Below, piece by piece: positions 737 to 26,165 of a stretch of DNA of 26,165 bases. The DNA lies in contig FN649733.1 in assembly GCA_000310025.1 (NCBI GenBank), forward strand, positions 2,290,770 through 2,316,934. Reading direction: 5' to 3'. The position numbers and the translations under genes are program-made. Origin of the DNA: Ectocarpus siliculosus. Lineage: Eukaryota > Sar > Phaeophyceae > Ectocarpales > Ectocarpaceae. How positions within the stretch are numbered: position 1 is the first letter of the stretch; every line of letters starts with the position of its first letter. The notes under the pieces are model-generated. The model saw nothing but the letters and a program-made list of their open reading frames with translations, ran no database searches and was not told where the DNA came from.

Positions 737-3700
737 CTATGTGTCACTCTTCACTTTCTCAAGGAGAATATTGTACAACAGAACCACCCAGTGGTCGATA
801 GGCCCAGGCAAGCAGTAGTGCAGGCCATCTGTTGCCGAGGCGTGGGAGTCTGCCCTCAGGATTGTCGGCGAGTAGGCATCCAGCAGTGTCCAGCCATGCG
901 TGGCCTCGAAAGCTTCCTCCAGGAGCTTTGGTTTCAACATAGAGACGGTACATCCAAGAGCGGGCGCACACGCAACCGTTAAGAGCACGATCTACACTAC
1001 ACTGTATTGTGCAAGAAATAATGAGGTTGAGCCTTTCACCCGAAGGGGAGAGTGAGATGCCATGTTGTTCGCGGAAAAAAACATTCCCAACCATCGTATC
1101 AGAAAACCAGAGCCAAATTTAATTCGGCTACACAAACTGCAAGATAATAATTATGATTTCCGGGAAAGTGCAGACAATATGGTAGAAACAGCAGTGGACT
1201 ATATAGCGGTCACCATCATGAAGTCAACTCTTGGTTGCCTCTATTAATAATCCATCGATAGAGTTGTGTCTTTCTCGTAACACAGCAGTGTAGATAAAAA
1301 AAAAAAACACAAACACACACACATACACTAGTTGCGTACAAAACTGAAGTAGTGTATATCCTGAGACATGACCCTCAAGTTCGAGTTCCTCCGCGGCCCT
1401 CCTGTCGGGGGATCCGCGGATTAAAAAAAAAGGAAGCGAAATCGTGAGTTTTCGCCCCGCTACAGCGAGAGCGGTGGCTTGTCGTTGGTGAGCCGGATAG
1501 TGTGGCCGATGTTAACAGAAGAGACACACACAAGCACATAGAGAACAAGAAAAAAACGAACCAACACTCACGGGCCGCAAGCATTGTAAAAGAGAGGCAA
1601 TGTGCTCAACGGGCCAAGAGGGACGCACGGGCAGCGGCTTCGGAGCAAACGTGTAAATGCGAACAGACATATACATATATATATATATGGTACCCGTAAG
1701 GATTCTTCGAGGGCGCCCATTGCCTGCCGAGAAACGAAGAAGAGCGGCAGAACGACAACCAATCATAACCATCCCACAAGGCTTCGCGTAAGTCTAGAGA
1801 CGGCACATGGTTTGCAGGAGGATGAGGGTGAAATAGTTGGCGAGAACACTCCCAATCTTTAACCTTGACTCGCACCCTCGAAAGTCTGGTTGTTCAACGT
1901 TCTGGGCGAAAAAACAGCAAAAACCGACTACAACATTACTGCTGCCGTGTACTCCGCTGATAAGAAAATCACACAGGAGGTGAGGACGAGCCTATCGCAG
2001 CGTACACACGGCGCGGTTTCTTGGGGCTCCCTCCCGCAACAAGCAAGATCGACTCTGAGGCCTCTCCCCAACCCTTGCTAACCTTCACACACGACGATGT
2101 CGCCAAAAGAAAGTAAAAAAACGAGGAGTCTTACCGTGTTCTTATCTAATATCGTCGTCCACTCGAACTCCGGAGGGCCTTTCTCGACGAGGTCGAGGGC
2201 CGTGTCTAAATTAACAGGCCCGGTGAACATCCTGTAACGTAAAGTGGCACACAAACATAAAAACGTTGTCGAAACTCAAGCTTTTCGGGCACGACACAAA
2301 CCACCTCCTCATATTCGGCAGTGGAGCAAAGTGTAGATACGAATCGGTGGGGGAGGGAACAATTGCCGAGACCGAAAAAAGACAGATGTCAATAAAAAAC
2401 TGGGCTGCCAAAGAAAAGAAATCGGATAAACCGCGTGCGGTAGCATTGCTCTGCTCGGGCTCGGAAGGACTGCTTGTTTTGTTTTGCGGGGTGGAGAGAT
2501 GTGGAGCAAAAGAAAAACACTACAACTTCTGCACACCACATGTCGCCGGAGGTGAACAACGCCGGAGATGCCACAAGAATGATGGCAGGTTACAAGGCAC
2601 AGCAATGGCGGGGCGGTGCAGCAGGGTTGATCCGTTTCCGGTGTGCGTGTGCAGGCGGATACAAGCGACGACGAACGACAGCACGTGCATGCCTGTTTTG
2701 TGCCAAAACAAATAATCTCCCGCGTTCAGGTCTGCACCTGTTGAGTTATCACCGCGCGATGCACATATCGACACTCGATGCGGGACGAGCCAGATATAAA
2801 CGATTGTGCAGAAAAACTTCCAGGCGACCTATCCCGCGCGTAAGACCTCGAACAATAAATATCCACGGCGTAGGTTCGCATGCCTCCCAAAGCCATCACG
2901 TATGAAACTGAAATTGTTTTTCAGCCGCCGCGGTAGACTATCGCCAACATCCCCTTCTTGAAACGTCTCCCACCTATCGAAGCTCTCGCCGTGACCCGGG
3001 ACGGTGTTCCTGACCACCAAGATGGCGTTATCCCCGTGTAACCGTCTCATCGACGCGGTCAGGCTCTCGCCAGCGGTCTTTATCATCGACCCGTACGCCT
3101 CCACCCCCCCCAATTGACGGTGTGCCCCAGCGTTGACGAGGAGGGTGTCATACTGGCTCAAGGTAGCATCATCTGCGAGAATGGAAAGCAGTCTTCACGT
3201 TACCTCGTTATCAGGATCGATTCCGAGCTGGCTCAGGGCAGAATCATCTGCGAGAATAAAAAAAATCACGCTGCCATGTCGTTCGGCACCGACATAGCGC
3301 AGACGACAACGCGGAACGCTGTTGTTGCACCATCATCGGTCTAGCTGCAACAATATCACCGACAACGCAGAGCCACGGCTTCCGAACGACAACACTACCA
3401 GCACACCAACAGGCGAGGCGAAGAGTTTCTCCAATGAGACAAGGCACGCTAGAGGTTCCCAACCGCAAGATGTGCTGCGCAAACATGCCTGATGTGGATC
3501 GAGTCCGTGACAGCCGATTTTCGACCCCCTTACGTCGGAGCCCTCTCTTAAAAGGTACCCGTCTTTTACATCGGAGCCACGACTGACGGTACATGCCTGC
3601 AAAGACCATGCACTGCGAGATGCTTATGTCGGGCTCCTCGCACCGCGGCGTGTCGAAGCCGTCCAATCGCGTGTCGAGGAAGTCGTTGCGGTACCACGAC

Positions 3701-6700
3701 AGCGTCAGCTCTCCGTCGCAGGCTGTGTACGTGTCCATCTTCAGGTGAACGTGCTTGACGCGCGTCGCGCGCAAGACCGCCCTTAGAGTATCGATCATCT
3801 CACCCGTCAGGCTGTCCCCTAGGTGTGTGTGGGGGGGAAATGGGGGGGGGGGGGGAGACGAGGTGTTGTTGTTGGAGTGTCGTCGGTACCTATCAAGGCC
3901 TGCCTGCACCTTGAGTTCTTTGTACGGGGCAAGAGAACGATAGGTGGTGGGTTTGCAGATTCCACCGACCATTCTGTCAGATGTTGTGGTTTCCTTGCAC
4001 GTGGAACCAAGGCAACGCCAAAAATTATCTTACAATAGCCTTTGCGAGAGGAGGAAACGCGGACTTTTCTCCATCAAACGGTGTTCAGGTGAGATATTTC
4101 CCGCCTTCCTTGCTCGTCTCGTCCCCCCCCGCCCGCCTCCGCCTGGGCGAGGGGTGCACCCCTAACCCCCTCCGCCATTTCCGCGACTCATATCTTCTGA
4201 GCGGGCATAGGCACAACAGGACCGTGCACCAGCGACAGTGCTACTTCGGGGGTGGCCCTTGACGTAGCCATGTGGCTCTCACCTGCGAACAGCAAACCCT
4301 TCCTCCCCTTCATAACGCGGCAGAACTTGGCTTCGTCCACCTCCTCCAGCCGGCACGCCGAAGGCTCCCACTTCCAGTACGGCATGGGGGGGACGGGCTC
4401 TTCGCCCTCATGCTCTGCTGACCATCTTTTGCCACACCTGTAGCGAGCGCGCGGCGTTTCAGACAGAACAATGGACGCAACAATAAACACAAACGCCTCC
4501 CGTGTTGTGCGTACTTGTGTCTTATGACTGCGCTCTTCACTGCCGTAACCCACAATCTAGTCGAACCACCCAGACGACGGAGAGATTTCTTCTTACGAAT
4601 TCCTCATTTTCTCGACGATTTTGAGCTGGCCGGTCCAGGCTTGTTGATATAAAAAGCGTTTACGACCGTTCAATTTTCGCGACAACAGAAAATGCACGCT
4701 TCTCGTGCAACACACAACTGTAGGGACGACTGCGGCGGGTTGCAGCTTGCGTCGGGCATACGTACGGGTTGAACACACCTTTGTAGTAGCGGACGGGTGG
4801 ACGAACTAATAGAGACGTACTCACGTGGGCTTACGATTCACCACAGGGCTAACTAGACAAAAAAAAAAGCTCCTGAGGCTACAAAAACGACACCTCCAGT
4901 GGGGTGGTCTTTACACCCGTTGTTGCATTCGGCGGCTATTCGACGCGCAGCTGGTATGCCCTACGGCCATTACGCACGGGATGCGAAAGCCACCATCATA
5001 CCCTTTCGCAGTTCGACCGGTAATAAATGGGCCGCTCCCCGTGTTCGTCGGCGACGCGTCCATGCCTCCCGCGCACTCGTTCCATCTCCCTTGGGAAGGA
5101 TCAGCGGACGTGCTCGAGTAGCACGGCGGCAAGCCGAGGTCGGTTTCGACGTTCGCGCAGTCGACGACAAGGGCTGGATACCTTTCCTCCCCAACGACGA
5201 CAAGCGGTGGTGGATCCTTTCCATCCCCTGCCCCCCCCGGGCGCGACCAACAAGAGGCAGGCGTGTGTTTGGTTGTCAATGGTGAGCGGGTTGGGTTTGA
5301 ACGCGCTCTTGCGGCTGCTGCACAAAGAGCGTGTGTTGTCTTAGGAAAATACAAACACAGAAAAGACTACGGAGTCTTTGCAGTGAGTGGAGGGAAACCG
5401 GCCGGGTACTGGCCTCACTTCGTATTTCGAGTCTGTTTTAAACCTTTACACTGCTGATGATGTCACCAGTGATAACCAGCTGGTGCGAAGCACCAAAACA
5501 AACACTGCTGTGTTTTCGTAGTTTTCTATGTACAAATGTCTTCCGTACTGCTGTGGGTCCACGCGGTCTTACGAAAACTAAAGACAAACAAGAGACTTGT
5601 CGCATCGGGATTGTATTTTAGTAGGAAAAAAAAATTGTAACTGCTATTGGATAGGCATAGTGTACAGCAGTAGGAGAGCATGACTACAGCAGCACTACTG
5701 GCCGTAGGGCGTCGACGACAGATGGTCATGGAGGCCGCTGTAGTTTGGAACGATCTCCTCGTAGAAACTTGAGGAAATCGCCCGCTGGTTACTTGTTTGT
5801 TTCCAACCTGTTCCCATTTCCGTGATACAGCTGCGTGGACATGCATACCCTGCGACGACGACAACAACCCGCATAGCGTACAACGCTTTCGGTGGGTGTC
5901 TGGCAGGCTCGCAGACAACACGTACACAAGTAACGATTTTCATGAAAAAGCTGAATAAACGGTTGTCTCGAGACAACCACGAAAAAGTTCTTCAAACTGC
6001 ATACTTACTGCTGCTGTGGATTGATGCTTGACACGGCTGTGTGTGTGGCTGTGCAACTCATCTCCAGATCAGAACAAATCAGAACAACAAGTTGTTCTCC
6101 AGAACAGCAGCTCTTTTCTCACACTGACGTGTGATGTATACAACTGCTGCTGCTATGCTACTGTTGTGCAACCACTGTTGTGGAGATATCCATTGCGATT
6201 TCCATTTTTGGCGGACGCTCTAGGGGCCTCCTGGCTATAACGACGGTGCCTCGAGTGGCAGACTTGTCGCAACGCAACGCCCCTTCGGCTGCTCCACAGC
6301 ATTAAAGGCGCACAGCATTAGTCTAGACTACAGCAGTAGTTCTTGGGGTCGTTGCGGCTCCGTCTATTCATTGCACATGTCCGGGCAGGCTTCGCAACAG
6401 CCCTCCGTAGGTAAACTTATGGCACATTCCCCATACTGAGAACAATCGCGAGGCGTGCGCATCCTCGTGCTCTGCGGAAGGGGTTACAGCAGTAGTGCGA
6501 GCAAGCCCTAGACGTCTATCCTCTGCTCTGCCCGCGGTCAGGCGGCTAAAATGCGTGCCACTATGCTTTCGAAGTGTTGACGCTGCAGAACACCGCCGTA
6601 TCATGCGTATGTCTGTACATTTCTCTGCAAACACTTGGTGTAGTGCTTATCCTTACCTCCGGGACACCGGCCCTTCAGCAGGGCGTCCATCCCGATCAAC

Positions 6701-10225: not shown

Positions 10226-13200
10226 TCATCGGGCGCGAGATCGGCTCCGCCCCCGCGAGCTCCCGCCACCGCCGCTGCTGCGCCTCGAGCGGGGGTGGCG
10301 GCGCTGCATGTCCTTGCCGGCCGCGTCCGCGATCACGCCCGACGATAGCGAGGACATCGAAATCAGAGCCTGTAGTTTTGGTCGACAAACGAAGAGGACG
10401 ACGCGTTTTCGAGGGCCAGGCAAGAGGTGGGGGCAGCGGCGTTGAAACGCCAAGCGAGGGAACAACGCAAGCCAGGGAATGCGTCGCAAACAACGCTGCT
10501 GCCTTGTGGAGCCCGGGGGCATAGCGTCAAGACTGGCGTTCAGGAAGAACGGGCAGAGGAAACCGCGTGAAACATTGCACTCGCACGGGAAAAACACCGG
10601 GGGCGGATATTGAACCAACATTGAAGAAGAAACAGTCGATTGGTTGAAGAATGGCAGTAGGGGCTACAGATACGGGGTCGTGCATTGCGGCAAGGCGGGC
10701 CAAGGTACTCCATCGTTGCTTTGCCTTGTCCGAAAATCAGCTTCCGCGCGATGGAAGTGTTGGGGCCCAGCTCCAATGCTTGGGGCCGTCCTTTCCCTTC
10801 ACGTATTGGCGGGTCGTTGGTTCTAGGAACTGCTGCAGCTTCTTCGCGAGTATTAGGACTTGCTTCGATCTCCTTTCGCCTCCAAGTTGTGTTTCGGGTT
10901 ATGGTCTGTGACAACACGGATATTCCTTTCTTTGCCTACACAGAGTAGGGAAGGTGGTGTGCTGGATGTGGGCTAGAGCGAAGGTTATGGTGAAAAACAG
11001 AAAGAATAACAACGAAAACAACCCAACTATGGAAGCCCTCTACTCTGGCTGAGCAGAGAGTCCGGGAGTGTGGTGGCTATGTCCTGCCACCGGAGGTTGG
11101 CTATTTCCTTTCGTGCAATGTGGCGAGGAATGCCAAGCGTGACCGAGCGAACTCAGTCAAGCTAGGGTGGCAAGGAGAGTGGGCGAGCCTTCGTGGACCC
11201 TTTTCCCATTCTCCTAAAGATTCATCAACTCTTCGCAGCCGATGGGAATCGTAAGAGTCATAGACCCTCGAAGAACGGTAATCTATTATCACATATCCTC
11301 TCAGATCCTACTCTTTATGTACGTGTATCTGTGCTCCCTGAATCTCCATATCCTGACCACCTCCACACAACAACCATTTCCTTACTTGAATGCAACTCAG
11401 TAGCTGCCGGGCGGCACAGCAGACCATCAGCGTCATCCACACCGCTTTCCACGCCGTAGAAAACGGCGACCCGTCCCCGTCATCTTCCGCCTCTCGAACC
11501 CCTAGGTCTTCCCCCAATCCCAGCGCGGCGGAGTCGATCCTGATTTGTGTTAGTGCACGCGTTTTTTGTTACGGGGCCGAACGATTCACAAAACTCGAAT
11601 ATATTTAGAAGAACATGACCCGCACGTCCGCCGGGTCTTGATTCTCAAAAAAAAGACCCAAGGAAGGCATTTCTGAAACCTGCCAACTAGATCCGAACGG
11701 CGGTTTTGATGCCAAGACAGCAGCAGCAGTAGCATTAACAGCAACAACAACAACCAGACGCAAGTATTGGATTATCCTTCACGGTATCGACCTACCACCC
11801 GCGTCTTGCAGCAGCACAAAAACGCGATGTTTACAGCTGTCTCGAGCGTACGCGCGCATGCGTTGATACGCTGTTCATTTTTTGGGTTCGAGATAATGCC
11901 TTCATGGTGCAAGCGCTCGCCCCAAATCAAGATATGTCCCGCCGAACCTTCTGTTTTGCTTCTCCTGGGCAAGGCTTTGTCCCACAGGCAAGCTGCAGTG
12001 ACGACATCGGTGTGAGCAGCTGCCGGTGGAACAGGGCATCTGTTCACGACGTCATCGCTACCACCCCGGTACCCTCGAAAGCTTGAACAGTACATATAGC
12101 GTGAAACGCTTGTTTCTCGATACATGAGCGCCAACAAACAGCAGGAGGCGAAAAAAAAAACTGGGCTCACACGAGCGCACACCTGTTCGGTTCGAAGCCG
12201 CCAAACACGCCTCCATCCTCCGCGGCGGTCGTGGTCTCTTCGCCCGAAATGAGAATCGAAGCGACTTCTTCATCGGCGATGTCGGAAGACAAGAAGGAAG
12301 AGGAGGAGGAGGAGGAAGGGGAGAAGGAAGACAGGAGCTCGGTGAACAAGCTCGAGAGGAAGTCGCCGGCTTTCGCCACCATCGCTCGCAGCCCGAGTGG
12401 GAGATCGGACGAAGCCACAAGGTAGGACCACACCAGGAACGCCTCGCTTCCCAGGGAGACCTTCGCGCGAGGCGGCAGTCGACATCGGGGTAGAATGGGA
12501 GGGGGGGGGGGTGTACTCACAGTCGTGCATGCCTTAGCTGTTTACTACCACGTGTCCTCGAGACGGTCGGGGGGGGGGGGGGGGGGGGNNNNNNNNNNNN
12601 NNNNNNNNNNNNNNNNNNNNNNNNNNNNNNNNNNNNNNNNNNNNNNNNNNNNNNNNNNNNNNNNNNNNNNNNNNNNNNNNNNNNNNNNGGGGGGGGGGGG
12701 GGGTACTCATGTAACGCATGTCGTAGTCGTTAGACCATTGGCCTTGGGGGAGGGGGGGTCCAAAATCGAACACAGAGGGCATCGTGAGGAGGGCGATCGT
12801 CAGCGGGAAAAAAAAAACAAGAGAGAAAGTCACAAGGTGTACAACAGCAGGGGACACCCCTAGTCCCAAACAAAGGCTTGCGTGCGTCAACTGAACACGG
12901 TCGCGTACGAAGAAAGACGGGGTGGGCGGCGTGTGTGCCTCGTACATATAGGTGCCTGCGGCGAGTTTTGACTCGGGTTCGTTGTTGTTGAAAAGGTTGA
13001 GCTCAGTCCACGCTGCCATAAATACCCACAAAACACGCCGCGACGAGAACAGCGATGTCTGTGCCGCCATACGAGCTACCGTTCGCGTACTATCAACGAT
13101 TCCCTTCTTTTGGCAAGCGGTTAGAGACCGTTGCCAACTATCTGATATAGGCGATGAAAATTCTCAAGACAAGACGCAAAGCAAAAGCGGGGGCAACAAC

Positions 13201-16200
13201 GCCAGCAGCCATACCAGGGTGAGCTCGACGGGGTGTGTCAGCATGATGTGCGTGGCGAAGTCGGGGGCCGCTCCCCTACCGCTGACTAGGGTGCCGGCCA
13301 GGGGGTGAGACCCGTTGGAGATACTCGCGACGGACAGCTGCAGCCAGTTCGCCGCTACAGGAAAAAAAAAAAAAAAAACAACGACAGCGACAACAGGCCC
13401 TTCAAGAGTCCGAATGCTTGTATGCACATATTTGCCGTCGATCCGATCTTAACGAAACACACACAGCATCCCGCTGTAAGATTGACATTTCTCCTTGATC
13501 AGCCGTTTAGCGCGGTCGATGCCAACACACAAAAACAATAACTCGCAGTGAGACTGACGTCTTTGCATTGGTCAGCCGTTTACCGCGGTCGATGCCAACA
13601 CACAAAAACACATTCACACTGAGACTGACGCCTTTGCATTGGCCAGCGGTTTACCGCAGTCGATTTGTTAACGTAAACAAACACACATATACACACTGAG
13701 ACTGACGTCTTTTCATTGCTCAGCCGTTTAGTGCGGTCGATGCCAACATACAAAAACACACACATATACTTCTACACAAAACAATACCCCGTGACTCACT
13801 CATGTCGAGGGCGAGCATGCCGCCAAAGATCTGTGAGTGCCTCGGGTCCTTGTCTAGCAGCACCAGCGAGCCCAGCAGGACTAAGTACGAGAAACGATCA
13901 CCTGCATGCAAGACAAGACATAACATCACGGGCAACTCCGCGCGCTTACTGTGGAGGGATATGACGTGTTCAGCAACAACGGGAACCAAGTGTGGGAACT
14001 GACGGGCGGCGTCATAGCCAACGTGCGTGAGGAAGGAAAGAAGGGGGAGGGCGTGCCAAATTGCTCCTATTTTTTCGTTCACGTCCTTTCCTTGCGATTG
14101 TTCCCGGCGAGGTCGGTCGGTACAAGCGGAATGGATGAGTTTTTCAACTGGAGCGTATCTTGTGCTTGCGACGAAAGGGTAGAAGAGTCGAGATGACACC
14201 ACGCCGGCGCTGACCGCGAAAACATGAAGGGGCGCCGTGGTTTCAACAGCGGTAGGGCACGCACACCACGCCGAGAGAGGATAAATTATCCCTTGTACGT
14301 AGGCGGATGCGTGAACGCACGGGGAAGCGCAGACTAGACCCAACACAGCGCAATCGCGCTGCCGTACGGCGGAAACTCCCGCGACGCGACTGCGTCGCTC
14401 CGGGCCAATCTTCAGGTAGCTTACCCATAGTTGCGAGCACCACGCCAAAGTCGTCCATGGGGACCCCAGGCCGGCTCGACGCCCACCTGCAGAAGACCAT
14501 ACCAAACGAAGATAAAAGGGTTCCGAATGACACGTCAGCGATTCGAGGTAGTGAAGGTAATACAACGGTCAAAGAACAAAGAGACGCCCCCGCACATTAG
14601 CGGCCGGACATGGCCGTGTGGTGCTCAACACCGCTCCTCTAGCCGCTACCGAGGAAGAAATCGTATGAAACGTCCATGCCTTGCAAACAAAAAAACATCT
14701 TAACGGAAGGAGCTAACACGAAAACGGTGGTCACGGGGCGATGCAGTGGATGAAGGGGATAGCAGCGCGCCATCTCCAACCGTCGGCAAGACCCGCCGGC
14801 AGGGAAAAAACCACAATCCACCGCGATATCTCCTGCGAACTCACTAGATAGACAGCGCCCGCAATCCCTCACGCGGCCAAAACCGGCGTGTCTTGAAAGA
14901 CCCCAACGAACTAACTTCCCACGCCGAAAGCCTGAGCCACACACAACACCAACAAGGGACCGAAACACCACCGCTGCTTGCCACCAACTCCGCCGAACCA
15001 AGACAAGCTTCGCTGATGCATGCGTTAAAACACAACCCACCGGGAGAGGATATCAAACACGTGCGCGAGCGCGGTGACGAGCAGGAACACGTCCGGGTGG
15101 ACCGTCACCCGGGCGGCAGCTAGGCCGGTGCACACGAGCCGAAGGTAGCACAGGGACAGCACCAGGGTGCGGAGGGCCAAGACCTTCAGAGACAACAGCG
15201 GGACAATAACGCAGGGGACAGTTTGGGTTTTTGGTAGTGTCACTGTTTGGACGTCACGTGCAGTTTCTTCGGGTTAGTACGCTCTTTGCCGTCATGTATC
15301 TACGAAGAAAGGTACTATTAGAATAACGATATGATATAACGCGAAAGGGCTCCTCCACAGAGCAAGGCGGTACACTCGAACTCCGCTTGCAATTTGCTGT
15401 TCACTCCCCCGTCATGCGAAAGCAGCACCCAGTTTCATATGCGACGCAGATTTACCGCCTTATTACTCCTCCTGTTTTTTGTCCCGACAACTTATGCCAC
15501 TCTGTTCGGTGACATGGTGCACATATGGACGAGCGTCGGCCTAACTGCTGCACTATTTGTAGTGTGCAAATCCTCAACAACAAGGGTTGTATTTTTTCGT
15601 TGCTCTCCCACCTGAAAGGCGTCAGTCTTGCTAATGGAAAAACCGGGCCTCGTTTTCGATGTCTGTTTTTTGTTGCAACAAAATACAGACGCTTTTGGTT
15701 CTTAGCACACTGATACAATTCAGTGTATAGGCTTAAACGAACTCAAAATAAGCCCAGTTTTCAGCCGGTTTCCCTCCACTCACTGAACAGACTTCAACAA
15801 CACATCCCTTTCGACTGGGGTTGTATCTCGAACGGGCAGCCTTTCTGCGAAATTATCATGTTTACTTTCTAAAAAGTCCCGCACCTGGGATCGCTTGACG
15901 CCGGGAAGAGTTCTGCTTGTCTCTTCCCCGTCTCTGCGGGAGTTGGTCCAAAACGAGTTGGGGAAACGGGGGATCTGAGGTTGGAGGGGGGGCGTGCTGA
16001 CTTGTAGCTCGCCGGTGTCGTCTGCATGGAGACCGTTGCTTGATTGCCTGGTCGAGCGCATCGACTGAAACGGGGGCCGTTATCATGCCTCAAAAAAGCC
16101 ATAGCCAAGATCTGAGCTACCTTTCCGCATACGCGTAACAAGGTCAAAAGGTGTAGCAGTAGGAAGAAAATCACGCCAAAACAAAGGCGCTGCTTGTAAC

Positions 16201-19200
16201 AAAACACCGGACAAGGCGTGCCGTGCCTGTCCAACCCGCCAAAATTATCCCTCCCCTGTGCCTCTCCTTCGTCTGTGAAGCGAAGGTATCAAGCAAGCAG
16301 CCAAACCAATGCGATGGGACTTTGGACAAGCGAATAGGACTGCTTTTGCAGACAAGCTCATCATGGTACCAACCACCACGACCATGACGACAACACCAAC
16401 AACAAACGACGACGACGAGGGTCACGACGACAACCCAAAACCACGACAGCAACAACAAAAAACAAACAACAATAGCAATGCAGGCAACTAAAACAACGAA
16501 CAACGATGACAGCAGCGAAACAACAAATCAAGAACAACAACAAACAAACAACAACGGGAATAAGGTCAACAGCGACAACGATAACACCAACAACAACAAA
16601 AAAAAAACACACGAAGAATAACAGCAGCACGCATAACAAAAACAACAACACCACCACCAAAAGGGGCGGGTTTGGATGCACTTGTGTCGTCTCACGTGCC
16701 GGGCACCTCGAGCACGGCCACCTCATTCCCCTTGGCGTCGGACAAGACCAGCGTTTCTCCGGAGTTCTCCATCACTTCCTTTCTCCGCAAAGAGCCGTCC
16801 TGTGAAATCAAACAACAACAACAACAACAAACAACACGTGTCACCGACGAGACAGAGTTGTAAAGTGTTGATGCTGCTATATGCTTCAGTCCGTTTATCA
16901 ACCTAAATATTGCACAAAGACCGATACATATTTCTCCAAGATCATTTACGCCCCCTCCCCTCGCCGACAAGCCTGGGCCAGGGAAAACCCGGTACACAGC
17001 TCCGCCCCGGCACTCGAGGGGTGCGAGGTCTATCGTCTAAAGACGACGGCATACTCCGTTACATGAGTACACCCCCATTCCCCGACACACGCACACAAGT
17101 TATTCAGGCAACCCTTCGGGAAACCACGGCGGTGATATTCATCCAACACACCTGATTGTGCCACAGGAGGAAAGGCTGAGGAAGGTTGTGCAGCGCGCCT
17201 TCCGAAAACTTTCCCGGGCAGCAGTACACTGGTGAAGCAGACAAGAACGTCGCAAGCGTGCGTCATGCGTAAACACATTCAGCGTCAAGGAGCTGGTTTT
17301 GCCTCTGCGGCATCCTCGCGTTCTGTGTTTTTGTGCCTACCCGACGCAGGAGGCCAAAACACGCTGCTAAGAAAACAACAACTCAGAAAGGCATGTGTGC
17401 GTAAGATGCAAGCAACAGGCGGGAACAATCGACGCGCAGAGAGGATCTACAAGAGCATGCGGCGACACAAACGCGTGAGTGCGCGCGTACGGCCCTAGGA
17501 CACCGACCGCGGACGGGATAAAAACAGCTGTCGCACGTGCCCGCTGGCATCGCAGCAACCTGTACCGACTACACCACGCAATCCGGTTCTATTCTGGCAA
17601 GGCTTCTGAACAGAGCACTCCAAATACAAGCTCAAATTGTCTCCCTACTGCTGTGAAGCGACCACCCGAAGCTCGACAGCACCAAACCTCTCAAACCAGG
17701 GGGCGGAGGTGCTATCTACCTACATGACCACAGCAGCAGCAACACGGTGGTTGTGCGGCTTCCAAACGCCGCTAGCCAAGGAAAATAAATACACGCACAC
17801 ACATCCTGCCCCTCCCCCTGTCGGTAGAATCCTTTGACTAGAAAGTTTGTTTGCGTTGTCTACCCCGCTCTGTAAGACTGGCGTCTTTTCAATGGTCAGC
17901 CGGCTAGCGCGGTCGATACGAATAAGAACAACACGCAATCAAGGGACTCACATGTCAAGGAAGTGCGGGCGCGCAGCACAAACCGTTCCGGGAAGTGGTA
18001 GGTGTGTCGCTGCAGGCGATCGGTCAGGGTGTAACCGGCGAGGTTGGCCCCCCTCCACACGGAGGGATTGCGAATCGTAACCGTTTCTGCTTCCAGGTCG
18101 GCGTGGGCGATGAAAGGCGGCGGCCGGAAGAGCCACTGCACGCGCGCAAGAAAATGATCGCAAGAAGACAAGCACCGCGTAAGATAGCAGGCAATAAGCT
18201 GGTTGCTCTTTGGGTTGTCTAGGTCGGTGTAGCGTCGTCCTGATCTCGTTTTACCCGGCACGTCTCTACCCTCCTCCGACGGATGCCTTACACGCTCATG
18301 CTGCTTGGAGCGAGGCTCCCTCCCGGGTATCGGAAGGGTAGTTGCGTCGTAGTGTTGTTGTTGTTGTTGTTGTCGTTGTTGTTGCTGTCTTCACACTCAA
18401 AATCGCTCCGGTCTCTACACGGTACCTTCTAATATCCTTACCAACTGACGTGCCTGTCGTGGGCACAGGCCAACGAAAAAAGAAACGTTCCAGTAGTAGA
18501 AATCAAAATGTGTACAAGTACTACATCACAAGTACGACCGACGAAAAAAACTACAAGGGTTGCGCCCAAGATGGGTCGCGACCGCCAAGTGCTCGCACAC
18601 GGAGTAGGAGCGAGGAGGGATGAGGGTGTTGAGATAACCTATGCACATGAATTTGTAGCAATCCCTCCGGATCGCCGCTTGTATGTCATCTCTGTCCCCG
18701 TCTCTCTCCCGTGGTCGTTATTCTGGGATTCGCTTTATCGCAAATCACGGTTCCCGTCATGAAGCGATGATAAATCTCCAGAATCTCTAGCACTCGACTA
18801 GAATACCTTGTGATGCCTGCGGGCGCACCTCACACATGGCACACCGGAAGCGACAAGATCCCTCACCGTGGAAAAGAGGGTGTGGTTCGTGAACTTGGAT
18901 TCACGATTCAAACGAGCTTGAAAATAGTTGATCGTGTGTGTGTGCTTTGAGGAACAATCGATCAGAGGTGGGGATACGGCCGGCATCTCCTCCCTTGCGA
19001 CACCGCACTAAAGTTGATCTACAGACACGACATCTGTTGGCCGTCACAGCGCCGCCGCCACTGCTGCGGTAAACGCGCCGTGCAACCGGCTGCTGTAAGG
19101 TCGATGCAACTTTGGCCGCGGGCACAGCGGAGTGAATATACGTGAACAACAACCCCCATGATGGCTGGTGTGCCGATCTGTCATGCTACATCTTTAAGGT

Positions 19201-19519
19201 ATGCCGTGCGAGAACTGGACAATTATCGAGGTCGCACATGTTTCGGGACAGAACAAACCACACCACAACACCACAGCAGCCATGGCGGCTCGTCTTGCCA
19301 GCAAGGAAGGCTACCAGTAGTAAGAGAACACCTCAACGACTAAAAAAAGGCACTATTTAGCTGTAGCTTCTCTGCACTACTAAAGCAAGTACTCACGTGA
19401 GAGCCAGGAGGGGTGGGGTCGGTGGGAACGTCATCCTCCTCTTGAACCTGGTGCGTATCCAGCCCTGGCAGAAGCAGGGACCGCGGCACCGACGGCACAT
19501 GAAAAGCTGCGGTCGCCAT
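10226..19519 (-). CDS. Lamin-tail-domain protein fused to a PI-synthase-like membrane domain, fourteen exons
   Basis: Minus-strand exons: 19519-19397, 18135-17952, 17228-17152, 16799-16696, 16047-15885, 15183-15041, 14486-14425, 14066-13950, 13901-13800, 13354-13215, 13058-13026, 12460-12183, 11539-11386, 10369-10226. Every junction keeps phase, giving 607 residues. Residues ~55-162 read as a lamin tail domain: VTIRNPSVWRGANLAGYTL, YHFPERFVL, FLLWHNQDGS, then GETLVLSDAKGNEVA. Residues 163-217 are a hydrophilic linker. Residues 218-580 track phosphatidylinositol synthase: YLR in the first helix, HVFD where the catalytic motif begins, LALDMTANWLQL for the conserved LD-x-x-SHW block, SNGSHP, SSRRVLW, GSEAFLVWSYL, then a last helix WMTLMVCCAARQLLSCIQ. 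Three of four catalytic Asp are missing, so activity is unlikely. A Ser-rich/acidic insert (~450-533) precedes the last helix; the tail is RS-rich (RGRSRSRAR). Probable site: ER or nuclear envelope (inference). The N-terminus may extend upstream. The acceptors of exons 5 and 12 and the 33-base exon 11 are the weakest borders. Confidence 0.8.
10527..10890 (-). pseudogene. Possible decayed coding fragment inside intron 13
   Basis: One minus-strand frame reads like protein, including LILAKKLQQFLEPTTRQYVK and GPKHWSWAPTLP, then an internal TGA near 10768. It continues in the same frame (FSDKAKQRWSTLARLAAMHD) to a TGA at 10527-10529. There is no plausible start codon. It lies wholly within the last intron of the LTD/PI-synthase-like gene. 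I do not recognise the family. It may be a transposon relic or a chance open frame. Confidence 0.3.
12300..12324 (+). repeat. GGA/GGAA-rich microsatellite in coding sequence
   Basis: A run of AGGAGG units falls inside exon 12 of the LTD/PI-synthase-like gene. On the coding strand it gives TCC codons and produces the polyserine tract in the hydrophilic insert. Length variation here would change the serine count without shifting frame. Confidence 0.8.
12500..12570 (+). repeat. GTACTCAT/TTAGACCATTG dispersed element, copy A
   Basis: A poly-G run (12501-12511) leads into GTACTCACAGTCGTGCATGC, then CTTAGCTGTTTACTACCACG and TCCTCGAGACGG. The GCATGCC, TTAG and CCTCGAG blocks align with the other copies. 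It lies in intron 11 of the LTD/PI-synthase-like gene, antisense to it, and ends in the G run at the left edge of the assembly gap. Confidence 0.7.
12589..12688. other. Assembly gap of 100 N, flanked by poly-G on both sides
   Basis: Exactly 100 N are bounded by about 18 G on the left (12571-12588, after GGTC) and 15 G on the right (12689-12703). A round 100 usually marks a gap of unknown size. The gap lies between copies A and B of the poly-G-headed repeat and inside intron 11 of the LTD/PI-synthase-like gene, so an exon could be hidden, although the flanking exons already join in phase. Confidence 0.95.
12689..12745 (+). repeat. GTACTCAT/TTAGACCATTG dispersed element, copy B
   Basis: Fifteen G residues lead into GTACTCATGTAACGCATGTC, then GTAGTCGTTAGACCATTGGCC. 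The alignment with the other copies ends in another G-rich stretch. It has the same orientation as copy A, on the other side of the gap. Confidence 0.75.
13361..13378 (+). repeat. Poly-A run next to the exon 10 acceptor
   Basis: On the coding (minus) strand this is the poly-T part of the polypyrimidine tract leading to the CTGTAG acceptor of exon 10. It supports that splice site. Confidence 0.6.
13475..13776 (-). repeat. Four-unit tandem repeat (70-79 bp) just inside a 5' splice site
   Basis: Units begin near 13475, 13551, 13621 and 13698. Each contains AGACTGACGTCTTTGCATTG-like sequence, then CAGCCGTTTA(G/C)CGCGGTCGAT and an A/C-rich CAACACACAAAAACA spacer. The array fills the start of intron 9 of the LTD/PI-synthase-like gene; in gene sense the nearest unit begins about 23 bases after the GTGAGT donor at 13799. 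A fifth, single unit occupies the same relative place in intron 2 (17873-17939). Confidence 0.9.
15749..15787 (-). repeat. Short dispersed repeat, GGAGGGAAACCGGC family, copy 2
   Basis: The stretch matches 22066-22104 at 37 of 39 positions. On the minus strand it reads TTCAGTGAGTGGAGGGAAAC, CGGCTGAAAACTGGGCTTA. It lies in intron 5 of the LTD/PI-synthase-like gene. Confidence 0.85.
16370..16670 (+). repeat. ACA/CAN trinucleotide-rich low-complexity tract
   Basis: About 300 bases are dominated by CAA, ACC and ACG triplets on the plus strand (GTT/GGT-rich on the minus strand). The tract lies in intron 4 of the LTD/PI-synthase-like gene. Long open frames through it on either strand are composition artefacts. 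A related (ACA)8 stretch lies at 16811-16834, upstream of exon 4. Confidence 0.85.
17010..17084 (-). repeat. GTACTCAT/TTAGACCATTG dispersed element, copy D
   Basis: On the minus strand, GGGGAATGGGGGT is followed by GTACTCATGTAACGGAGTAT, GCCGTCGTCTTTAGACGATAG and ACCTCGCACCCCTCGAGTGC. It lies in intron 3 of the LTD/PI-synthase-like gene, in sense orientation. The 3' block CTCGCACCCCTCGAG matches copy E (CGCACCCCT) and copies A and C (CCTCGAG). Confidence 0.7.
17873..17939 (-). repeat. Single copy of the intron-9 tandem unit, in intron 2
   Basis: It reads TAAGACTGGCGTCTTTTCAATGGTCAG-like sequence, then CCGGCTAGCGCGGTCGAT. It aligns with the intron-9 array and lies about 12 bases inside the GTGAGT donor of exon 2 (17951). 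Confidence 0.8.
18353..18387 (+). repeat. (TGT)n microsatellite
   Basis: About eleven GTT-type units with one interruption (GTC), located in intron 1 of the LTD/PI-synthase-like gene. Confidence 0.9.
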
Positions 19520-24969: not shown

Positions 24970-25047
24970 GGGGGGGGGGGGGGCGTACTCTTATGTTTTG
25001 CATGCCTTAGCGGTTAGACCATTGACCACGCGTCCTCGAGAGGACGG
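24970..25047 (+). repeat. GTACTCAT/TTAGACCATTG dispersed element, copy C
   Basis: A 13-base G run leads into CGTACTCTTATGTTTTGCAT, GCCTTAGCGGTTAGACCATTG and ACCACGCGTCCTCGAGAGG. It abuts and overlaps the 3' end of the LINE reading frame, supplying its last codons (RGRVVNGLTAKACKT), so the true LINE stop may have been lost or the element inserted there. Confidence 0.75.
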
Positions 25048-26071
25048 AGCATTGTTCCCACAGGACCGATCACCAATGGTCAATCGTTCCTTCCTACTTT
25101 GCCAAAGGTGGCTCAAAAATGTCTTCCCTAGTCTGTCTATCCTAACGATATCCCTTCCCGCCTTTTCAACCCACTTCCTACTCCCCAGTACAGCTACCGT
25201 CCTCTCCTCTCTATTCCATGCCTCAAACATCTCCCTGTACGTCACTTGTATTTTTCCCAGCTCAGTCATGTACACTTCCCTCTCCTCTTCGTACCACGGA
25301 CATTCCGCGACTACATGAACACGGTCTTCGCATTCGAAGCCGCAATCACATTTGAACTTGTCGTCTTCGTCGTCTATCGTCCTATCTATGTCTTCGTCGA
25401 CGTTATCGAAGGCCTATGTCCCCGGTCCTGAATTTGACCTTAAGCTGTGTCCCTGCATCCATTGGTCCATGTAGGTAATCCTTGAACCCTATCCCTTCTT
25501 TCAACATTCCGTACACTTCTAGACCCTCCTTATCCTCGGTTTCTTTCCTTAGATTCTGTTCTTCTCTCTCGGCACAAGCAACAGATATCTTCTCCTTGAA
25601 CCCCTGTAGACCCTCCGTTTCCAGCGTTTCATCTTCGTCGATGTCTAACCCCTTCCATACGTCCTCTACAACATTGACCCATTCCGTGGGTTGTCTACCC
25701 CTCTTTTTGTTTGCCCACTTCGCCTCCCATACTACTCTCGGCAGCCTCTCCTCTCCCATCCCGCACATGCGATACTGCCATGTCAGCTTCCTTGCGTCTC
25801 TTCCCGAACGTAGGGATTGGATCCCCAATTCTGCCCTGACGGCTGCATTACTTGTGCGCTTGGAGCATCCTAGGATGATTTTCGCTGCTTTCATCTGCGC
25901 CGCCTCGAGGGGGGGGGTGTTCATGCCAGTAACAATCGTTCCCGGAGCAAAGACACAGATCCTTTTCATGTGTGTTGCGCCGCAAGTGCTGCCACCATGC
26001 CGGACTGCTTGCTCTTTGCACCTACAGCAGTCCCGTCTGAGAAAATCGCTCATGTCTATAGTAATTCGCAA
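24991..26071 (-). mobile_element. 3' part of a non-LTR retrotransposon (LINE), frameshifted
   Basis: This is the region C-terminal to a LINE reverse transcriptase. The first frame (26071 down to a TAA at 25403-25405) reads AAQMKAAKIILGCSKRTSNA, AVRAELGIQSLRSGRDARKL, WEAKWANKKRGRQPTEWVN and KDYLHGPMDAGTQLKVKFRT, the order typical of this tail. The second frame, offset by one base, takes over near 25405-25417 and has the terminal C-x-C-x3-C-x4-H-x4-C knuckle (25300-25350) and ECPWYEEER, ending at 24991. The reverse transcriptase catalytic domain is absent: the frame is closed by a TAA just upstream of 26071, and the sequence further upstream (to 26165) looks unrelated. A 5'-truncated, dead copy. 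Confidence 0.85.
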
Positions 26072-26165
26072 CTCTTAGGGCTGTTTTTTGTTTCCCGCCT
26101 ATGTTTGGATTCTTTGCTGCTCTCCATTTTTTGCCGTTTTCGGTCGACCCCCCCGCCCCCCCTCT
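26072..26165. other. Flank upstream of the truncated LINE, unassigned
   Basis: T-rich sequence ending in C runs. The LINE-like frame does not continue through it. It may be the 5' truncation junction or diverged LINE sequence cut by the window edge. Confidence 0.4.

What the first reader, a model, noticed from the sequence alone, without database searches (positions are those of the whole stretch)
10226..19519. Lamin tail domain fused to a PI-synthase-like membrane protein
Fourteen minus-strand exons join in phase. The N-terminal part carries the strand order and motifs of an LTD (VTIRNPSVW, LAGYTLTD, YHFPERFVL, LLWHNQDGS, ETLVLSDAKGNEVA). The C-terminal part follows phosphatidylinositol synthase from YLR to the final helix. 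Metazoan LTDs sit in lamins and a few other proteins, and bacterial ones in secreted or membrane enzymes. I know of no described LTD/CDP-alcohol-phosphotransferase fusion. It could tether an LTD to the ER or nuclear envelope membrane in an organism that lacks classical lamins.
Basis: partly seen in the sequence, partly recalled or inferred. Interest (0 to 1): 0.9.

Follow-up and report, generated by a model that had tools for sequence, protein, structure and literature searches.

The report
Lamin-tail domain on a dead lipid enzyme
Brown algae carry a gene that joins a lamin-type globular domain to a membrane domain related to the enzyme that makes phosphatidylinositol but stripped of most of its catalytic residues, a combination that could anchor a lamina-like protein in the nuclear or ER membrane of these seaweeds.

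Summary
The finding holds, with corrections. On the minus strand, 10226-19519, I find 12 exons (not 14), all GT-AG and in phase, giving 519 residues, 512 identical to a predicted Ectocarpus sp. 6 protein. The gene is single-copy here at the sensitivity. Relatives with a named organism are brown algae; of the eight used, five span the junction between the domains.

New: the PIS part is a predicted pseudoenzyme. In the alignment five of eight signature residues, including two of three metal-binding aspartates, are replaced in every relative covering them, while 70 of 70 aligned PIS proteins keep all eight. Two PIS genes with the full signature lie elsewhere in the genome. Most likely the domain anchors the LTD in the ER/nuclear envelope; location and function are inferred, not shown.

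The parts
19397..19519 (-). exon 1, start codon, residues 1-41 (conserved PSVPR..LLLPGLDT N-terminus)
   Evidence: matched by P0004
17952..18135 (-). exon 2, residues 42-103, first part of the lamin tail domain
   Evidence: E 5.3e-17 with P0004
17152..17228 (-). exon 3, residues 103-128, LTD including the LLWHNQ stretch (LIWKNQ in lamin B1)
   Evidence: not matched on its own, present in P0001-P0004
16696..16799 (-). exon 4, residues 129-163, end of the LTD
15885..15933 (-). exon 5, residues 163-179, linker between the domains (acceptor at 15933/15934, not at 16047)
   Evidence: relatives P0001-P0004 lack the longer form; not matched on its own
15041..15183 (-). exon 6, residues 180-227, first two helices of the PIS-like domain
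15043..15054 (-). second-helix signature remnant: D1 kept (D223), D2 replaced by S226
   Evidence: alignment A5; the register in this helix is uncertain by a few residues, but only one aspartate is present there
14425..14486 (-). exon 7, residues 227-248; G2 kept (G241), D3 replaced by A245 (codon 14432-14434)
   Evidence: D3 to A in 8 of 8 relatives
13800..13901 (-). exon 8, residues 248-282; D4 kept (D249)
13215..13354 (-). exon 9, residues 282-328
12183..12460 (-). exon 10, residues 329-421; GSEAFLVWSY helix (GxELFYxxLY in PIS) and a variable acidic stretch not found in PIS
   Evidence: weak (E 0.06) with P0004
11386..11539 (-). exon 11, residues 421-472; end of the variable stretch and start of the last helix
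10226..10369 (-). exon 12, residues 473-519 and stop
10226..10258 (-). arginine/serine tail SRGRSRSRAR before the stop; RSRxR ends 6 of 6 relatives that reach the C-terminus

Best explanation
The gene encodes a brown-algal, multi-spanning membrane protein. Supported by computation: an N-terminal lamin-type LTD (about residues 45-163), a short linker (exon 5), a domain of the CDP-alcohol phosphotransferase fold homologous to PIS but without most signature residues (about 178-490), a variable acidic stretch before the last helix, and a conserved Arg/Ser tail. Inferred: the dead PIS domain is a membrane anchor, and perhaps a dimerisation or lipid-sensing module, in the ER/nuclear envelope. Six predicted helices would put the LTD and the RS tail on the same side, the cytosolic or nucleoplasmic one. 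There the LTD binds protein partners, chromatin or DNA as lamin LTDs do (recalled), and the basic RS tail retains the protein at the ER/inner nuclear membrane or binds nucleic acid. In outline it would work as the animal lamin B receptor does: a nuclear binding module carried by a membrane domain of lipid-enzyme kind.
Confidence: 0.5

Rival explanations
1. A regulator of phosphatidylinositol synthesis: the dead PIS domain pairs with one of the two true PIS proteins (that CDP-alcohol phosphotransferases are dimers is recalled) and controls its activity or place, with the LTD as a docking module.
For: Two PIS paralogues with full signatures in the genome. The family keeps 15 of 40 near-invariant PIS positions in all members, perhaps more than a bare anchor would need. 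Regulatory pseudoenzymes beside active paralogues are common (recalled).
Against: No interaction data. The divergence from PIS is extreme, about 10 changes per site on the separating branch, which leaves little reason to expect a shared dimer face.
Confidence: 0.25
2. A still active CDP-alcohol phosphotransferase with an unusual active site or a changed substrate.
For: D1, G2, D4, R194, D280 and E334 are kept in every relative that covers them.
Against: In alignment A5, D2, G1, A and R of the signature are replaced in 7 of 7 relatives and D3 in 8 of 8, against 0 of 70 PIS rows; in the profile alignment the window's close relative P0001 keeps an R one residue on. D1-D3 hold the metal (PMC4634129 passage).
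Confidence: 0.12
3. Two genes (an LTD protein and a membrane protein) joined by gene prediction.
For: The join falls at a short linker exon whose acceptor I first misplaced. No RNA-seq could be mapped, and most relatives are themselves gene predictions.
Against: Of eight relatives, P0001-P0005 cross the junction; P0006-P0008 are fragments that do not reach it. P0004, 519 aa, lies on contigs no longer than 2,569 bases, too short for a copy with Ectocarpus-like introns, so it is probably from a transcript (inference).
Confidence: 0.05
4. An ER or plastid-ER membrane protein whose LTD has nothing to do with the nucleus, for example a contact-site or lipid-binding module.
For: LTD-like domains occur in bacterial and eukaryotic proteins that are not lamins (PMC5630835 passages). 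Arg-rich tails are also ER-retention signals (recalled).
Against: Among solved structures the LTD is closest to lamins in sequence and in fold, although no set of bacterial LTDs was compared side by side.
Confidence: 0.2

Closest known systems
Nuclear lamins (LTD, PF00932)
   Different: LTD near the N-terminus; no coiled-coil rod, no CaaX end; membrane domain instead
Eukaryotic phosphatidylinositol synthase (CDP-alcohol phosphotransferase, PF01066)
   Same: Collinear homology from YxR in the first helix to the RQ..Q (KQ..Q) helix; same fold in the model
   Different: Signature D1xxD2GxxAR...GxxxD3xxxD4 broken; variable stretch before the last helix; fused LTD
Lamin B receptor (LBR)
   Same: By analogy only: nucleoplasmic binding part, RS region and a membrane domain of lipid-enzyme kind (PMC5617974 passages)
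   Different: Unrelated domains (Tudor plus sterol reductase); RS region in the N-terminal part of LBR, C-terminal here; LBR has sterol reductase activity
Bacterial and eukaryotic non-lamin LTD proteins
   Same: LTD without a rod
   Different: None with a CDP-alcohol phosphotransferase domain appeared among the rows listed by my paper searches; the supplementary table of PMC5630835 that lists such proteins was not seen

Membership tests
Lamin | Lamin tail (Ig-like) domain | tested here: met
   Pfam LTD E 1.4e-7 (window; bits just under the cut-off), 46.0 bits in P0004; lamins top the sequence and fold comparisons with solved structures
Lamin | Central coiled-coil rod | tested here: not met
   About 44 residues precede the LTD and what follows is the PIS-like domain; no Filament match in the protein at E<=10; no separate coiled-coil predictor was run
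Lamin | C-terminal CaaX box | tested here: not met
   6 of 6 proteins that reach the C-terminus end in RSRxR
Phosphatidylinositol synthase | CDP-alcohol phosphotransferase fold and collinear sequence | tested here: met
   the model used PIS rows, so the fold test is partly circular
Phosphatidylinositol synthase | Signature D1xxD2G1xxAR...G2xxxD3xxxD4 | tested here: not met
   D1 (6 of 6), G2 and D4 (8 of 8) kept; D2, G1, A, R replaced in 7 of 7 and D3 in 8 of 8; the status of R depends on the register
Phosphatidylinositol synthase | Enzyme activity | not testable with these tools
   needs a bench assay
Lamin B receptor | Sterol reductase membrane domain and Tudor domain | tested here: not met
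   no such Pfam match at E<=10 in the window protein or P0001-P0005
Inner nuclear membrane protein | Localisation at the inner nuclear membrane | not testable with these tools
   no localisation data

The most novel reading that the evidence does not exclude
Brown algae, in which the survey passages I saw name no lamin, built a lamina component of their own by welding a lamin-type LTD onto a dead phosphatidylinositol synthase, so that the LTD is held directly at the inner nuclear membrane by a lipid-enzyme-derived anchor. This would be a convergent counterpart of the lamin B receptor that carries the lamin domain itself.
Probability: 0.35. Interest if true: 0.82.

Novelty: new variant of a known kind. 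Interest (0 to 1): 0.62.

Why it matters
How eukaryotes without canonical lamins organise the inner face of the nuclear envelope is open, and brown algae are an independent origin of complex multicellularity. A conserved, apparently single-copy membrane protein bearing a lamin-type LTD is a concrete candidate that can be tagged or knocked out; a genome-editing method for brown algae is described in PMC12853178 (only the start of the abstract seen, listing). It is also a clear candidate for a lipid-synthesis enzyme fold kept as a scaffold after loss of catalysis.

Tried and rejected
Exon 5 as first joined (15885-16047) was dropped because P0001-P0004 lack the extra stretch. Pfam and NCBIfam do not report the PIS part, and PF01066 has six matches in the genome, none in the window, so a PIS profile was built from PIS relatives. 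A shallow profile-profile comparison gave only probability 46, E 2e-4. The first structure model, from 5 rows, was unusable (pLDDT 37). The quick tree places the family as one clade (support 100) on a branch of about 10 changes per site; joining it with six brown-algal PIS rows is neither supported nor rejected (p-AU 0.466), so origin by recent duplication is unsettled. The own-genome search with PF00932 found nothing, not even this gene, so it says nothing about other LTD genes. PF00038 gave 5 weak matches (best E 0.0039, 23 bits, cut-off 40); 6 of 14 prokaryotic controls ring as well. No relatives were confirmed in viral or prokaryotic contigs. A phage search with one exon was empty. Rfam on the window was empty. 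Pfam on 7 other open frames of the window was empty at E 0.1.

Rows dropped: the PIS profile used only those of the 120 PIS proteins fetched (of 360 found) that are 195-290 aa long. Alignment A5 used 70 of the 120, chosen by hand for spread, plus P0001-P0008. P0009, the ninth match, a fragment that seems to read into an intron, was left out of every alignment and count. P0007 and P0008 were left out of the trees. HMMER reported 439 of 1000 plain shuffles (highest 4.3), 1597 of 2000 class-preserving shuffles (highest 7.6) and 7 of 8 reversed sequences; unreported ones were counted as not reaching the real score. Scores of the window protein are for the 557-residue first version.
Full report
Where it lies. 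The window is G000:C8:2290770-2316934 of a 189-Mb genome. I take the genome to be Ectocarpus siliculosus because the PIS protein P0010, named so, is listed with a contig of 3,847,105 bases, the length of contig C24; this is inference.

Observation. Reading the minus strand gives 12 exons from ATG 19519 to the stop at 10226-10228; every intron is GT-AG and the frame is kept. With the exon 5 acceptor implied by relatives the product has 519 residues, 512 of them identical to P0001 from Ectocarpus sp. 6 AP-2014. The profile search returned nine proteins at E<=10, all from the 7,995 candidates that share most words: full-length P0001, P0002 (Pylaiella littoralis), P0003 (eukprot g6555.t1, organism not named) and P0004 (source tag 'lgn', not named); partial P0005 (Scytosiphon promiscuus), P0006 (Hapterophycus canaliculatus), P0007 (Laminaria digitata), P0008 (Undaria, read from its 'Undpi1' name) and the unnamed fragment P0009, which I left out. 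Every named one is a brown alga. Searching the genome with P0004 gave 11 matches at E<=10: 10 fall on 10 of the 12 exons (all but 3 and 5), in order, one of them weak (exon 10, E 0.06); the eleventh, elsewhere, has E 0.36. The gene is therefore single-copy at this sensitivity. P0004 has 519 residues on contigs of at most 2,569 bases, while the Ectocarpus gene spans 9.3 kb. I take it to come from a transcript; that 'lgn' means an assembly of public read sets is recalled, not from a call.

Loss of the catalytic signature. PMC4634129 (passages) gives the CDP-AP signature D1xxD2G1xxAR...G2xxxD3xxxD4, with D1-D3 on the metal and D4 as likely base. In alignment A5 all 70 PIS rows have all eight residues. 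The family keeps D1 (6 of 6), G2 (8 of 8) and D4 (8 of 8) and has S or G for D2, R for G1, S for A and S for R (7 of 7 each) and A for D3 (8 of 8). Of 40 positions at least 90% conserved in PIS, 15 are kept in all members and 25 are not, four of these 25 being kept by some members. The second-helix stretch can be aligned in another register: in the profile alignment, P0001 keeps an R one residue on, where relatives have Q. In any register only one aspartate is present there (read from the sequence), so two of the three metal-binding aspartates are missing. Two PIS genes with the full signature lie on C13 and C24. The family is a predicted pseudoenzyme. The loss is shared by Ectocarpus, Pylaiella, Scytosiphon, Hapterophycus and Laminaria (and D3 by Undaria), so it is old within brown algae.

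Origin. Six members form one clade (SH-aLRT 100, quick tree) on a branch of about 10 changes per site. Their joining with six brown-algal PIS rows is not rejected (p-AU 0.466). Descent from PIS is the simplest reading; its time is not resolved. That one search lists no relative with a named organism outside brown algae is weak evidence of absence: the search needs shared five-residue words, skips proteins far from the query's length, and scored only the best-sharing candidates.

How it may work. I count six membrane helices in the model (177-203, 209-230, 239-263, 267-294, 323-345 and the first part of 446-496), which would put both ends on one side. Against this, the hydropathy scan flags only four regions, and a further helix at 353-374 is predicted. 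In the enzyme family the active-site cavity is at the cytosolic boundary (PMC4634129 passage). The tail is basic (11 K+R, 2 D+E) and the stretch before the last helix acidic (3 K+R, 20 D+E), which fits a cytosolic or nucleoplasmic tail and LTD; this is inference. The tail ends in RSRxR in 6 of 6 relatives that reach it; it could be a nuclear or ER retention signal or bind nucleic acid. The nearest functional parallel is the lamin B receptor, with a nucleoplasmic RS-bearing part and a sterol-reductase membrane domain (PMC5617974 passages). The parallel is of design, not descent.

Literature. 'Lamin tail domain' with 'brown alga' is in no held paper; with 'stramenopiles' only in PMC5630835; PIS with 'pseudoenzyme' in none. 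Broader searches held far more papers than they list: 20 of 69,712, 15 of 1,142, 20 of 357, 12 of 1,819 and 10 of 79; no listed title or abstract start describes this fusion. Of PMC5630835, PMC4448529, PMC4634129 and PMC5617974 I read passages only. The supplementary table of PMC5630835, which lists eukaryotic non-lamin LTD proteins, was not seen and might contain this gene.

Scores. Architecture and homology of both domains: about 0.95. Pseudoenzyme: about 0.85. ER/nuclear-envelope anchor for the LTD: about 0.5.

Noticed in passing
window 13456-13760 and 17853-17936: A repeat (GAGACTGACGTCTTTGCATTGGTCAGCC...CGGTCGATGCCAA), four near-tandem copies in the intron between exons 8 and 9 and one in the intron after exon 2. 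It is interspersed through the genome: 44 matches from 40 scored of 808 candidates, a lower bound.
   Followed up: partly
window 12589-12688: An assembly gap of 100 N flanked by C runs (minus strand) inside the intron between exons 9 and 10.
   Followed up: no
window 24991-26074, minus strand: Open frames that look to me like the end of a retroelement reverse transcriptase (recalled resemblance); no Pfam match at E 0.1.
   Followed up: partly
G000:C13:1244335-1244535 and G000:C24:1004084-1004855 (L010, L011): Two phosphatidylinositol synthase genes with the full catalytic signature in this alga; Pylaiella also has two PIS proteins in the listing (P0013, P0024).
   Followed up: partly
window 2829-4556, minus strand: Several adjacent open frames that may be exons of another gene; no Pfam match at E 0.1.
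   Followed up: partly
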